Shown piece after piece: positions 4,427-10,031 of a stretch of DNA of 64,000 bases (positions are counted from its first letter, which is position 1; each line of letters opens with the position of its first letter). The notes beneath the pieces were generated by a model. That model did no database searches. It worked only from the letters and a program-made list of their open reading frames with translations, and was not told where the DNA came from. Source of the stretch: Bacteroidota bacterium (lineage in GTDB: Bacteria; Bacteroidota; Ignavibacteria; UBA10030; SZUA-254); NCBI GenBank assembly GCA_020056225.1, contig JAGVIE010000048.1, forward strand, positions 37,352 to 101,351. Direction: 5' to 3'. The position numbers and the translations under genes are program-made.

Positions 4427-5428
4427 TTATGAGACCATATTGATAATTGAACCTTTGAGCAATTTTCGCATCGACATCATATCCTGCGGCAGATCGGAAT
4501 CAAACCTCATAAATTCCTTAGTCACCGGATGCATGAACCCGATTGTTTTAGCGTGCAGTGCTTGTCGTGTTATAATTTTTAAGAAATTCTGGACTTCTTC
4601 TTTTTTCTTTTTCTCAGTACCGCCCCATGCAATTCGCCTGCCGCCGTATGTAGGATCGCCAAATACCGGATGACCTATATGATGAAGATGGACGCGAATC
4701 TGATGAGTACGTCCTGTCCGCAGTTTTAATCTTACAAGAGAAAGATACTCGAATTCTTCAAGAACTTTATACTCGGTGATCGCCGCCTTGCCGATTGCGC
4801 TGACAGCGAATTTCTTTCTGTCGGATTTACTTCTGCCGAGCGTTGCTTCTATGATTCCCTCTCTGTCTTTCTTTTCGAATCGTCCCCACACAAAAGCCCA
4901 ATATTCACGCTCGGTCGTTCTGCGTGAAAATTGTTTTGCCAGATGAGCATGTGTTGTATCATCCTTTGCGACAACCATTAAGCCCGATGTATCTTTATCG
5001 AGCCTGTGAACAATTCCGGGTCTGGTTAAATCGTTGACGGTTGACAGCCGATCGTTGCAATGGTAGAGCAGTGCGTTAACCAGCGTGCCCGAATAATTCC
5101 CGTACGCAGGATGTGTAACCATCCCCGCAGGTTTATTTACTACAAGCAGATAATTATCTTCGAATAAAATTTCCAGCGGAATATTTTCCGGAACAACATC
5201 GGGGGAAGGCGGCTTTGGAATAGTGACGGATATTACTTCACCGGGAGAAATCTTATGGCTCGGTTTAACAATTTTTCCATCGACTGTAACGAATCCTTCG
5301 TTGATAGCATGCTGAACTTTAGAGCGGGTCGCGTTTTCCACATGATGAGTTAGAAAGACATCCAATCTTTCACGGATTTTGCCGGCAGGGACTAAGATTG
5401 TAAATTCACGAGACGACATAGTCGTCAC
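4427..5428 (-). CDS. rluD: RluA-family pseudouridine synthase (RluD-like)
   Basis: 333 residues. An N-terminal S4 RNA-binding domain (residues about 18-80, RLDVFLTHHV...GFVTVDGKIV) is followed by the RluA catalytic domain. The active-site aspartate is D144 in HRLDKDTSGL, preceded by NKPAGMVTHP and followed by RTGRTHQIRVHL. These enzymes isomerise uridine to pseudouridine in rRNA; RluD acts on helix 69 of 23S rRNA. The S4-plus-catalytic layout and the position beside lspA match the RluD branch, but the target uridine cannot be proven. The ATG overlaps the lspA stop by 4 bases. A lysine/glutamate-rich insertion (TEKKKKEEVQ) lies near residue 270. Confidence 0.85.
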   Translation of the reverse strand: MTTMSSREFTILVPAGKIRERLDVFLTHHVENATRSKVQHAINEGFVTVDGKIVKPSHKISPGEVISVTIPKPPSPDVVPENIPLEILFEDNYLLVVNKPAGMVTHPAYGNYSGTLVNALLYHCNDRLSTVNDLTRPGIVHRLDKDTSGLMVVAKDDTTHAHLAKQFSRRTTEREYWAFVWGRFEKKDREGIIEATLGRSKSDRKKFAVSAIGKAAITEYKVLEEFEYLSLVRLKLRTGRTHQIRVHLHHIGHPVFGDPTYGGRRIAWGGTEKKKKEEVQNFLKIITRQALHAKTIGFMHPVTKEFMRFDSDLPQDMMSMRKLLKGSIINMVS

Positions 5429-6072
5429 GATTTAGATTGTTCACTTTGGATAGATGGATTATTTGCCTCTGGAGTAATTTCCGGCATATTAATAACGCTC
5501 GCATCCGCGCTTCCAGTCGGCGGGAGCGCCGGTTCTTCCTTTTTGTGCGCATTGTGAGTAAACATCAACAAAATAACTCCGCATGTAACAGAAGCATCGG
5601 CAATATTAAAAACGGGCCAGCGGTTAAGGTGATACCCGAAGAGATTAATATTGAAAAAATCGGCATCGATAAAATCCACGACCTTACCGTAAAACAACGG
5701 ACCTTCATTGAACAGGACTCCGTAAAACACACGATCGATTAAGTTACCAACCGCACCGCCAAGGATTAATGCCAGCGAAATTCTAAAAGCAACACTCTCA
5801 TTGCGCGCTTTGTATAAGTACAGTAAAATACCTATACTTGCCAGGATAGAGAAAATTGAAAAGAATAATTTCCCGCCCAGATCGATACCGAAAGCCATTC
5901 CCGGGTTTTCGATGTATGTGAGCCGAAGAGCATCGCCCATGATAGAGAAACTGCTTCCAAGCTGGAATCCGGGGACATTGATACCTAATGCGGGTATCGC
6001 AAACCCTTTGACGAATAGTTTTGTAAGCTGATCGGATATTACAACAGCAAGACTGAGATTTAAAATACGCAC
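5425..6072 (-). CDS. lspA: Lipoprotein signal peptidase (signal peptidase II)
   Basis: 215 residues. An inner-membrane aspartyl protease that removes signal peptides from diacylated prolipoproteins. The catalytic pair is present: D113 in GNLIDRV and D159 in FNIADAS. The family signature YIENPGMAFG and four membrane helices are recognisable. It has an unusual hydrophilic, proline- and acid-rich C-terminal tail of about 40 residues (from HKKEEPALPP) compared with typical LspA of 150-170 residues. It is clustered with ileS and rluD, as in many bacteria. A substrate is likely present in this window: the lipoprotein gene at 14928. Confidence 0.93.
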   Translation of the reverse strand: MRILNLSLAVVISDQLTKLFVKGFAIPALGINVPGFQLGSSFSIMGDALRLTYIENPGMAFGIDLGGKLFFSIFSILASIGILLYLYKARNESVAFRISLALILGGAVGNLIDRVFYGVLFNEGPLFYGKVVDFIDADFFNINLFGYHLNRWPVFNIADASVTCGVILLMFTHNAHKKEEPALPPTGSADASVINMPEITPEANNPSIQSEQSKS

Positions 6073-6094: not shown

Positions 6095-6631
6095 TTATTT
6101 ATGAGAATGTAATTTACACTGCAGACATTGTTGGGCATGCGGTACAGCTTCGAGCCGTTCTTTTTCGATTAACTTGCCGCATATCGAACATTTTCCGTAA
6201 TCGCCTTTCTCAATCCGTGCGAGAGCATCTTCAAGATGATTTAAGAATTTCCCTTCACGCGATGCAAATAAAAATGTCTTCTCTCGCTCCATAGCATCCG
6301 TTCCCTGTTCCATGTGCGTAGAATACGTAGAGTTCTCCGTCGCATACTCTCCGGTCGTCGAGTCCATCATTGTATCTCGCAGTGTTTCCAGTTCCTCGAG
6401 GATTTCTTTTTTCTTCTCGAGGATGATTGTTTTAAAATAAGCTAATTCCTCTTTGGCATAACGGAGTTTTCCAGTCGGAACTTTCACAATTTCGGGCTTA
6501 ACCGGTTTAGCTATTTTCAGTTTAACCGGCAGTTTCTTTTTCTTTGGCGCGAGTTTCCGCCCTTTCGCTTTTTCTTTAAGAAGATTGATTGTTTTATCTG
6601 CTATTGCCGAATTCTTCTTTAATTTTGCCAT
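6095..6631 (-). CDS. TraR/DksA-type zinc finger protein
   Basis: 178 residues from the ATG at 6631, chosen because it has a ribosome site (gaaaggga) and starts after the ileS stop; a longer in-frame start would overlap ileS. The N-terminal 70 residues are very basic (KKKKLPVKLKIAKPVKP). A coiled-coil segment follows, and the C-terminus has a C4 zinc finger with spacing C-x2-C-x17-C-x2-C starting at CSICGK. DksA/TraR proteins enter the RNA polymerase secondary channel and modulate rRNA and stress transcription. The position between ileS and lspA is a known arrangement. A direct regulatory role is inferred only. Confidence 0.82.
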   Translation of the reverse strand: MAKLKKNSAIADKTINLLKEKAKGRKLAPKKKKLPVKLKIAKPVKPEIVKVPTGKLRYAKEELAYFKTIILEKKKEILEELETLRDTMMDSTTGEYATENSTYSTHMEQGTDAMEREKTFLFASREGKFLNHLEDALARIEKGDYGKCSICGKLIEKERLEAVPHAQQCLQCKLHSHK

Positions 6632-6657
6632 AGTGCTATTCCCTTTCGTTGATAAAT

Positions 6658-9600
6658 TTATTTCGTTATACGCTCGATACTGATCGAACATTGTTCGCCG
6701 TTAATGTCCCATTCGGCAGTGTATCCTCCTTCGACAAGAATTTCGATCATGCCAGTTGCAAGCGTTTCGTTCTTCACATATTCCCCAAGTGAACTTAATG
6801 CTCTCGATAATTTTTCCTTTGCATCATATGAGATACGAATTCTATCGGTAACATCAAAACCTGCATCCTTCCTCATATTCTGAATGCGGCTTATAAATTC
6901 ACGCGCGAATCCTTCGTCAATCAATTCCTGTGACAGTTCTGTATCGAGTGCGACTGTAACCGTGTTATCCGATTCGACTACCCATCCTTTTAACTCTTCA
7001 TGCAGTATTTCAACATCCTCGCGAAGGATGACAGTTCCTGAGCCGTTCAACTGGATGGTAAGACTTCCTCTTGTCTCGATCTCTTTGATTTCCTTTGATG
7101 TAAAATTTCTGATCGCGGCGGCAACAGGCTGAACCGACTTTCCATATTTTGGACCGAGCGATTTAAAATTAGGTTTTACCGTTTTATGAACGATGCCAGA
7201 ATCATCATCTACATATTCAAGCTTTTTCACGTTTATTTCATCGAGGATAACATCTTCCATCCGCGCAATCTCTTCACGGTCGCGTTCATTGAAAACCGGA
7301 ACTATGATGCGCTTCAACGGCTGGCGTACTTTAAGGTTAGATTTGTTCCTTATCGCGCGAACGAGTGATACAATTCTCTGCGCTTTCTCCATTCTCGATT
7401 CAAGCGCATGATCGATTGCTTTTTCATCGGCTTCAGGTATCATTGCCAGATGTACGGATTCGTCGGCTTCCCGCTTCGCGACTGAATTGAGATTCGAATA
7501 AATCGATTCAGCAAGAAACGGCGCGAATGGCGCCATCAATTTTGATATGACGATTACGCACTCGTACAATGTTTGATAGGCGGCAATCTTATCGGCGCCT
7601 TTTTCATTTTTCCAGAACCGGCGTCTGTTTCTTCTTACGTACCAATTCGATAACTGGTCGATAGTAAAATTGCTGATTGCACGCGCGGCTTCGGTTACAT
7701 TATAATTATCCATCGCTGATTCATAGGTCTTGATCAAAGAATTTAATACCGAAATAATCCAGCGATCTATCTCGGGCCGTTTGTCAACCGGTACATGTGT
7801 TTCACTAAAAACAAATTTATCGATATTCGCATATAAGCTGAAGAAGGCATAAGTGTTCAACAGCGTTCCGAGGAATTTCCTTTGAACTTCAACAAGACCT
7901 TCTTCATCGAAAAGCGTAGGCCGCCACGGCGGACTCGTTGCCACTAAATACCATCTGGATGTATCCGCGCCGTACTTCTCGATGATACCGAATGGGTCAA
8001 CGGTGTTTCCCTTCGACTTCGACATTTTCTGTCCGTCCTTATCGAGGATAAGATCGTTGACAAGGATATTCTTGTATGCCGGTTTATCGAACAAAAACGT
8101 GCTGATAGAATGCAACGAATAAAACCATCCCCGTGTTTGATCGACACCTTCACAAATGAAATCCGCCGGATGCTGTTCGCCGGAATCAATCAACTCTTTA
8201 TTCTCGAACGGATAATGCCATTGCGCAAACGGCATCGCGCCCGAATCGAACCACACATCGATGAGTTCGGGTGTGCGTTTCATCTCGCCGCCGCATGAGC
8301 AATCGAATGTTACAGCATCAACATGCGGTTTGTGAAGATCGAGCGGCTCCTGAATTCCTTTCCCTTGTTTATACTCTGCAACACTTCCGACACATTTTAG
8401 CTTGCCGCATTTTTCACAAACCCAGATCGGGAGCGGCGTGCCCCAGAAACGGTCGCGAGAGAGCGACCAATCTTTATTATCTTCCAGCCAATTTCCAAAA
8501 CGACCCTCACCGACTTCGGGCGGAAACCAATTGATTGTTTTGTTCAGCTCAACCATCCGGGCGGCGTACTTCGTTGTAGCGATATACCACGACTCACGCG
8601 CATAGTACAACAACGGCATCTTGCACCGCCAGCAATGTGGGTAACTGTGCGTGATCATTTCCTTTTTGTAAAGGATATGACGTTCCTTTAGATTTCGGAT
8701 GATATCCGGATCGGCATCTTTTACAAACTTACCGTAAAACTCGGTAACTTCGGGACCGAATTCTCCGCTTTTGTTTACCGGATGGATTGTCGGGAGACCA
8801 TACTTCTTCGAAACTTGATAATCGTCTTCACCGTATGCCGGTGCGATGTGAACAATTCCGGAGCCATCTACAGTTGTAACAAAATCTCCTTCAATTACAT
8901 ACCACGCCCGTTCTTTTGCAGGATGATAACTGTAAAGACGCTCGTATTCTTTACCGGTCAACGCCTTACCTTTAAATTTCTCAATCACCGCATATTCACC
9001 ATCAAGCACACCAAGTCGCGCCTCGGCAAGAATTAATTTTTCACCTTTGTGTTCAACCTTCACATAATCGACATCGGGATGAATTGCAAGAGCAACATTC
9101 GATATCAACGTCCATGGCGTTGTAGTCCAGACGAGGAAATAGGTATTCTCCTCTCCTTTTGCTTTCATCTTGATGTAAATACTCGGGTCTTTCACATCTT
9201 CGTAACCGAGGGAAACTTCGTGCGATGACAATGGAGTTTCACATCTGGGACAATACGGTTGAATCTTGTATCCTTTATAAATCAAACCCTTATCGAAGTA
9301 CTGCTTCAACGCCCACCAGATTGATTCGATATATTCATTCGTGAATGTAATATACGGATCATCGAGATTGACCCAATAACCCATCCGCTCTGTCATTCTT
9401 TCCCAATCGGCCTTGTATTTCCAAACTGACTTCCTGCATTCGTCATTGAACTTCGAAACACCGTAACGAACGATATCTTCTTTGTGCTTGAAGCCGAGCA
9501 TTTTTTCGACTTCAATCTCGACCGGCAAGCCGTGTGTATCCCATCCCGCCTTACGATGTACCTGAAATCCTCTCATCGTTTTATACCGGCAGACTAAATC

Positions 9601-9810
9601 TTTCAACGTGCGGCTCATAACGTGATGGATCCCCGGACGTCCGTTTGCGGTCGGCGGACCTTCGTAGAATGTAAAGCCCGGTTTACCGGCGCGGAGGGAA
9701 ATACTTTTCTCGAAAATTTTGTTCTCTTTCCAGAACTTTAGAATTTCCAGCTCGAGCTGAGAGTAATTTATTTTATCTGTGAGTTCTTTGAACACTATAT
9801 TATTATTCAC
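6658..9810 (-). CDS. ileS: Isoleucine-tRNA ligase with swapped HIGH signature (GIHH)
   Basis: 1050 residues, class I synthetase charging tRNA-Ile. The ATP-binding HIGH motif reads G60-I-H-H63 within ANGRPGIHHV, with first and third residues swapped relative to H-x-G-H. KMSKS is intact at 595-599. The editing domain, zinc-cysteine clusters (CPRCETP, CEKCGKLKC) and anticodon domain are present. The eukaryote-like (IleRS2) architecture matches Bacteroidetes enzymes; IleRS2 is naturally less sensitive to mupirocin, and the GxHH swap has been described in hyper-resistant IleRS2. The start is GTG at 9810, overlapping the DUF2905 stop by 4 bases (GTGA), so translation is coupled. Essential housekeeping gene. 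Confidence 0.96.
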   Translation of the reverse strand: MNNNIVFKELTDKINYSQLELEILKFWKENKIFEKSISLRAGKPGFTFYEGPPTANGRPGIHHVMSRTLKDLVCRYKTMRGFQVHRKAGWDTHGLPVEIEVEKMLGFKHKEDIVRYGVSKFNDECRKSVWKYKADWERMTERMGYWVNLDDPYITFTNEYIESIWWALKQYFDKGLIYKGYKIQPYCPRCETPLSSHEVSLGYEDVKDPSIYIKMKAKGEENTYFLVWTTTPWTLISNVALAIHPDVDYVKVEHKGEKLILAEARLGVLDGEYAVIEKFKGKALTGKEYERLYSYHPAKERAWYVIEGDFVTTVDGSGIVHIAPAYGEDDYQVSKKYGLPTIHPVNKSGEFGPEVTEFYGKFVKDADPDIIRNLKERHILYKKEMITHSYPHCWRCKMPLLYYARESWYIATTKYAARMVELNKTINWFPPEVGEGRFGNWLEDNKDWSLSRDRFWGTPLPIWVCEKCGKLKCVGSVAEYKQGKGIQEPLDLHKPHVDAVTFDCSCGGEMKRTPELIDVWFDSGAMPFAQWHYPFENKELIDSGEQHPADFICEGVDQTRGWFYSLHSISTFLFDKPAYKNILVNDLILDKDGQKMSKSKGNTVDPFGIIEKYGADTSRWYLVATSPPWRPTLFDEEGLVEVQRKFLGTLLNTYAFFSLYANIDKFVFSETHVPVDKRPEIDRWIISVLNSLIKTYESAMDNYNVTEAARAISNFTIDQLSNWYVRRNRRRFWKNEKGADKIAAYQTLYECVIVISKLMAPFAPFLAESIYSNLNSVAKREADESVHLAMIPEADEKAIDHALESRMEKAQRIVSLVRAIRNKSNLKVRQPLKRIIVPVFNERDREEIARMEDVILDEINVKKLEYVDDDSGIVHKTVKPNFKSLGPKYGKSVQPVAAAIRNFTSKEIKEIETRGSLTIQLNGSGTVILREDVEILHEELKGWVVESDNTVTVALDTELSQELIDEGFAREFISRIQNMRKDAGFDVTDRIRISYDAKEKLSRALSSLGEYVKNETLATGMIEILVEGGYTAEWDINGEQCSISIERITK

Positions 9811-10031
9811 TTTCTAGTAAGAAACGATATCAACCAAAATACTATGCTTAGCAGAAAACTTAGAATTAAGCTCGATGTAATTGGAAAATAAAACTGAAAA
9901 TTATCTTTCTTTATGTTTATATCCCCCGGCAGTTTGCCAAGCAGAGGAATTTTATCAAAAAACATCAGCACAATACCAACACCGGTTAGAACTAAACCGA
10001 ACACAATCAACAATTTTCCGATGGTCTGCAT
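9807..10031 (-). CDS. DUF2905 small membrane protein
   Basis: 74 residues with two membrane helices (about 4-24 and 50-71) and the family hallmark GKLPGDI at the start of a short loop. This family of small inner-membrane proteins is widespread and of unknown function, often found beside ruvB, queA or translation genes. Here it lies between the purine nucleoside phosphorylase and ileS genes; its TGA overlaps the GTG start of ileS. Confidence 0.8.
   Translation of the reverse strand: MQTIGKLLIVFGLVLTGVGIVLMFFDKIPLLGKLPGDINIKKDNFQFYFPITSSLILSFLLSIVFWLISFLTRK

What the first reader, a model, noticed from the sequence alone, without database searches (positions are those of the whole stretch)
9622..9633. 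IleRS active-site signature HIGH changed to GIHH
Codons 60-63 read G-I-H-H, so the first and third residues of the class I H-x-G-H motif are exchanged, while KMSKS (8014-8028) is normal. I recall published work describing GxHH as a hyper-resistance feature of eukaryote-like IleRS2 against mupirocin. The gene is the only visible ileS in the window and is embedded in a conserved operon, so the trait would be intrinsic and not acquired.
Basis: partly seen in the sequence, partly recalled or inferred. Interest (0 to 1): 0.7.

Follow-up and report, generated by a model that had tools for sequence, protein, structure and literature searches.

The report
Isoleucyl-tRNA synthetase with swapped HIGH motif
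The only isoleucyl-tRNA synthetase gene found in this bacterium's assembly reads GIHH where most enzymes of its class read HIGH, a published natural variant that is predicted to make the enzyme almost insensitive to the antibiotic mupirocin; the relatives that were read carry it too, so it is ordinary for this lineage.

Summary
ileS (9810-6658, minus strand) reads G60-I61-H62-H63 at 9633-9622 and a normal KMSKS at 8028-8014. The protein is a type 2 IleRS: PmIleRS2 chains score 1017-1030 bits, IleRS1 chains at most 408. One ileS was found in the assembly. Here the swap is the lineage's default: GXHH in 30 of 30 loci read from the genome and its relatives; in 296 phylum genomes the GXHH pattern matches 192 and the HXGH pattern 0; 20 of the 104 non-matching genomes were read, and all 19 with a readable motif were GXHH. 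Mupirocin insensitivity of this enzyme is inferred, not measured. Less expected is a side observation: the genome's only ValRS hit reads TMGH, without the first His, and Thr and His alternate 9 times (6 forced by well-supported branches) on a 59-row tree of the phylum.

The parts
6658..9810 (-). ileS, type 2 isoleucyl-tRNA synthetase, 1050 aa, GTG start
   Evidence: TIGR00392 1008.8 bits against a cut-off of 621.4; best solved relatives PmIleRS2
9622..9633 (-). GIHH, residues 60-63: HIGH signature with first and third residues exchanged
   Evidence: gap-free alignment; 30 of 30 loci
8014..8028 (-). KMSKS signature, residues 595-599, canonical
8050..8052 (-). Leu587, at the place of His582 of PmIleRS2 (reoriented in its mupirocin complex) and Phe586 of PmIleRS1
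   Evidence: gap-free alignment; residue roles from PMC10485003
6670..7257 (-). C-terminal PF19302 (DUF5915) region, residues 852-1047; no zinc-finger family matched
9807..10031 (-). small membrane-protein ORF (labelled DUF2905 in the script from recall, no model run) whose end overlaps the ileS start
6095..6691 (-). dksA/traR-type zinc-finger gene downstream (longest ORF; an in-frame ATG at 6631, just after the ileS stop, is the likelier start)
   Evidence: PF01258; sequence; hit on the ileS strand in 49 of 80 related loci
5425..6072 (-). lspA, signal peptidase II
   Evidence: PF01252; hit on the ileS strand in 45 of 80 related loci

Best explanation
It is the housekeeping type 2 isoleucyl-tRNA synthetase of this bacterium, carrying the published GXHH form of the HIGH motif, which likely lets the third histidine do the catalytic work of the missing first one while blocking the antibiotic mupirocin. 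Shown here: the motif, the IleRS2 type, the single copy found, and the presence of the motif in all relatives read. [quoted passage not shown] The trait would be chromosomal, inherited and old, not an acquired resistance gene.
For: IleRS2 by score and coverage: PmIleRS2 chains 1017.5-1029.9 bits over residues 13-1015, IleRS1 chains 280-408 bits ending by residue 827. No C-terminal zinc-finger family, only Cys751 and Cys1041 after residue 553. KMSKS intact. One ileS found in the assembly. GXHH in 30 of 30 loci of the genome and relatives, 66 of 77 readable named-genome loci, 192 of 296 phylum genomes by pattern against 0 of 296 for HXGH, 19 of 19 readable in 20 of the 104 pattern-negative genomes. 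PMC10485003: D. radiodurans IleRS2 (ALHH) Ki 6.6 mM, 8.1 uM when its motif is made canonical; structural argument.
Against: No enzyme of this lineage was assayed here or in the parts of the paper that I read. The pocket differs in places: Leu587 stands where PmIleRS2 has His582. The structural argument rests on an engineered PmIleRS2 variant; the paper says hyper-resistance itself could not be seen by crystallography.
Confidence: 0.87

Rival explanations
1. Same enzyme and same biochemistry, but the motif persists for reasons unrelated to mupirocin: an old, near-neutral state of IleRS2 fixed in the lineage, with drug insensitivity as a by-product. It differs from the best explanation only in why the motif is kept, so the two confidences need not add to one.
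For: The motif is found in every sampled phylum member that could be read, whatever its relation to mupirocin producers; the paper reports no clear catalytic cost in the natural AXHH enzyme.
Against: The paper infers at least two gains and one reversion and proposes antibiotic selection; nothing here tests selection.
Confidence: 0.4
2. The enzyme is a GXHH IleRS2 but is not hyper-resistant, because other pocket residues (for example Leu587) restore mupirocin binding.
For: Pocket residues are not identical to those of the characterised enzymes.
Against: The published effect is a steric clash with the third His itself.
Confidence: 0.08
3. GIHH marks a broken or duplicate ileS, and a second canonical ileS does the work.
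For: None found.
Against: Open frame of 1050 codons, no second ileS in an assembly listed as 100% complete, the same motif in all 29 relatives whose loci were read.
Confidence: 0.01
4. It is an acquired mupirocin-resistance gene of the MupA/MupB kind.
For: It resembles both models because they too describe type 2-like IleRS: 936.2 and 941.9 bits.
Against: Both scores are about half the curated cut-off of 1900 bits; it is the only ileS found and sits among genes that recur beside ileS in relatives.
Confidence: 0.005

Closest known systems
G/AXHH-type IleRS2 (Brkic et al. 2023, PMC10485003), e.g. Deinococcus radiodurans IleRS2 (ALHH) and Streptomyces griseus IleRS2
   Same: Type 2 IleRS, first and third motif residues exchanged, KMSKS intact, housekeeping copy
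   Different: Only in lineage; no kinetics for this enzyme. The main text read and searched has no mention of Chlorobi or Bacteroid; the supplementary tree was not seen
Canonical IleRS2 (P. megaterium IleRS2, T. thermophilus IleRS2)
   Same: Closest solved relatives over the whole length
   Different: HXGH motif; mupirocin Ki 1.08 and 0.20 uM in the paper
IleRS1 (P. megaterium IleRS1, S. aureus IleRS1)
   Same: Same enzyme activity and catalytic fold
   Different: At most 408 bits, aligned to residue 827 at most; canonical motif in all IleRS1 of the paper
MupA / MupB
   Same: Type 2-like IleRS that resist mupirocin
   Different: Scores about half the curated cut-off; here chromosomal and the only ileS found

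Membership tests
G/AXHH-type IleRS2 | Type 2 rather than type 1 sequence | tested here: met
   1017.5-1029.9 bits with PmIleRS2, at most 408 with IleRS1 chains
G/AXHH-type IleRS2 | Type 2 C-terminal region without the zinc-binding motif of IleRS1 | tested here: met
   PF19302 at 852-1047 and no zinc-finger family; only Cys751 and Cys1041 after residue 553; the paper states that IleRS2 lacks that motif
G/AXHH-type IleRS2 | G/A-X-H-H in place of H-X-G-H, KMSKS kept | tested here: met
G/AXHH-type IleRS2 | Displaced helix alpha-1 tip with the third His at the place of the first | not testable with these tools
   Needs a structure with an intermediate analogue; no structure prediction was run
G/AXHH-type IleRS2 | Millimolar mupirocin Ki with normal catalysis | not testable with these tools
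   Needs a bench assay; published for other enzymes
MupA/MupB acquired resistance gene | Score above the curated cut-off of the NCBIfam exception model | tested here: not met
   936.2 and 941.9 bits against 1900
IleRS1 | Best similarity to IleRS1 chains and IleRS1 C-terminus | tested here: not met

The most novel reading that the evidence does not exclude
The HIGH motif of class Ia synthetases is evolvable beyond IleRS2: this organism charges both isoleucine and valine with enzymes that lack the first, supposedly catalytic His (GIHH in IleRS, TMGH in ValRS). In ValRS, Thr and His exchange again and again within one phylum, which would make the first His of ValRS dispensable and TXGH a second natural signature variant, not yet described in the papers my searches reached.
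Probability: 0.4. Interest if true: 0.45.

Novelty: new member of a known kind. Interest (0 to 1): 0.22.

Why it matters
It adds a lineage to the IleRS2 with a swapped catalytic motif and shows that there the swap is the default form, not a rare resistance mutation. Mupirocin insensitivity, if it holds, would be intrinsic in these bacteria and say nothing about drug exposure. The more useful lead is ValRS, where loss of the first His recurs in the same phylum and can be tested directly with purified enzymes.

Tried and rejected
Second ileS: sought with PF00133 and with the protein, none found. Acquired mup gene: below cut-off. Misalignment or sequencing error: excluded. Positions that go with GXHH: 22 positions besides 60 and 62 separate the 115 GXHH from the 11 HXGH rows (for example Cys74 in 115 of 115 against Pro in 11 of 11; Asn585 in 110 of 115 against Leu in 10 of 11), but all 11 HXGH rows are Bacillota on one branch, so this is no evidence of coupling. 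Covariation with Thr52 of ValRS: the best other column is Val567, ten residues after KMSKS (97% of Thr rows, 8% of His rows), same direction in 4.8 of 6 independent pairs on average, sign test median p 0.0625 before any correction for the many columns looked at; not claimed. Repeats around ileS: one weak two-copy direct repeat and one weak inverted pair, nothing of note. A search for ValRS homologues among 5.8 billion proteins listed only the best 120, all at least 64% identical, and did not widen the census. Rows dropped before counting: for IleRS L016 (the alignment runs out of frame at the motif) and L022, L056, L168 (no N-terminus); for ValRS L144 (no N-terminus). The motif columns were left in both trees. 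No structure prediction was run.

Full report
Observation. The window's minus strand holds an ileS gene at 9810-6658 (GTG start, 1050 aa). Residues 60-63 are G-I-H-H (9633-9622) and residues 595-599 are KMSKS (8028-8014). phmmer against the PDB aligns this stretch without gaps to HVGH of the Priestia megaterium IleRS2 chains 8c8v and 8c8u and to GVHH of 8c8w.

What it is. The protein passes the NCBI ileS model (1008.8 bits, cut-off 621.4). Against solved structures it scores 1017.5-1029.9 bits with the four PmIleRS2 chains, 953.5 with 1ile (T. thermophilus IleRS2 according to the paper), 649-818.7 with five chains of which three are labelled cytoplasmic, and 280-408 with five further IleRS chains that match at most to residue 827. 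That 8c9e, 8c9f and 1ffy/1qu2 are IleRS1 follows from PMC10485003; for 8wnf and 8wni I infer it from score and coverage. The C-terminus matches PF19302 and no zinc-finger family; after residue 553 only Cys751 and Cys1041 remain. It is therefore an IleRS2. The MupA and MupB models match at about half their cut-off.

Copy number and setting. In the window's assembly (3.5 Mb, 62 contigs, listed as 100% complete) PF00133 gives 8 matches: this ileS, a ValRS, a LeuRS (two stretches), a MetRS (two stretches), a second MetRS-like gene and a CysRS (translations). ileS and valS have model support; the other names are my reading of the translations. LeuRS reads HVGH, the MetRS-like genes HLGH and HIGH, CysRS HIGH. 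No second ileS was found with the protein as query. Around ileS lie an alanine-racemase-domain gene (yggS-like), divIVA, a phosphorylase-family gene, a small ORF whose end overlaps the ileS start, then a dksA/traR-type gene, lspA and a pseudouridine synthase gene. Among 80 related loci, many cut short by contig ends, a hit on the ileS strand was found for dksA in 49, lspA in 45, the phosphorylase gene in 27, the pseudouridine synthase gene in 26, yggS in 25, divIVA in 23 and the small ORF in 4; adjacency itself was not scored. The nearest named loci (up to 73% identity) are MAGs titled Ignavibacteriales, Ignavibacteriae or Bacteroidetes.

How it works. From PMC10485003 I read the abstract, introduction, discussion and four of the five results sections plus passages; not the section on modelling, the methods or the supplements. 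It reports, among 379 prokaryotic IleRS, 86 G/AXHH IleRS2, 77 HXGH IleRS2 and no IleRS1 with the swap. D. radiodurans IleRS2 (ALHH) has a mupirocin Ki of 6.6 mM, which falls to 8.1 uM when the motif is made canonical; its catalytic efficiency is like that of canonical IleRS2. The proposed cause is a shifted helix tip in IleRS2 that lets the third His take the place of the first and clash with mupirocin. Applying this to the present enzyme is inference. Leu587 stands where PmIleRS2 has His582, so the pocket is not identical. Three literature searches listed no other paper on the GXHH motif; I read none of the other papers listed.

Is it special here? No. Of 80 IleRS loci from titled genome records, 77 had a readable motif: 66 GXHH and 11 HXGH, the latter all Bacillota. 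All 30 loci read from the window's genome and 29 relatives are GXHH; the call searched 40 genomes and returned loci for 30. In 296 genomes of the phylum the pattern A-N-G-x-P-(G/A)-x-H-H matches in 192, and the same pattern with H-x-G-H in 0. Of the 104 genomes without a match I read 20: 19 had a readable motif and all 19 were GXHH, with TVNG for TANG; 84 were not read. On a FastTree tree of 126 IleRS the two states are separated by one branch; unrooted, this does not say which is older. It neither confirms nor contradicts the paper's two gains and one reversion, since my sample lacks its other clades.

A side observation. The same genome's only ValRS hit (one match at E 1e-100 or better) reads TMGH: Thr in place of the first His. 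Of 30 ValRS loci from the order, 29 were readable: 23 TXGH and 6 HMGH; the six are the six members of family f5 in the sample. Of 30 read from other families of the class and phylum, 10 are TXGH and 20 HXGH. On a tree of 59 rows (33 T, 26 H) the state needs 9 changes, 6 of them forced by well-supported branches. The one ValRS among the solved relatives (1gax and two more entries of the same sequence) has LHMGH here. Four literature searches found no paper holding 'TMGH' with their other terms; they cover open-licence PMC papers only, and I read none of those listed. PMC10485003 says that loss of the first His costs about 1000-fold in several class I enzymes, so this deserves its own look.

Verdict.

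Noticed in passing
L001:1456-4218 (G000:C4:21550-24309, outside the window): The genome's only ValRS hit reads TMGH: Thr for the first His of HIGH, with KMSKS normal. In 59 ValRS of the phylum 33 are TXGH and 26 HXGH, with 9 changes on the tree, 6 forced by well-supported branches.
   Followed up: partly
L005:1519-3231 and L006:1-1683 (G000:C27 and C39): Two MetRS-like genes in the genome, one with HLGH and KFSKS, one with HIGH and KMSKT (names from reading the translations, no family model run).
   Followed up: no
G148 (C1:44012 and C10:603), G041 (C1:2029842 and C1:2203204), G214: Each of these three phylum genomes has two matches to the GXHH pattern, possibly two ileS genes or a chance match.
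   Followed up: no
L078 and L084: Two Bacillota (FC7 and Peptoniphilus asaccharolyticus) carry GIHH and group with Cloacimonadota IleRS (support 99), apart from the 11 HIGH Bacillota: possible gene transfer.
   Followed up: no
L073 and L082: IleRS of two MAGs titled Gammaproteobacteria carry GIHH and group with Rhodothermota (support 99): transfer or binning error.
   Followed up: no
G004: A same-family genome listed as 96% complete gave no ileS-like match, its best hit being ValRS-like; probably an assembly gap.
   Followed up: no
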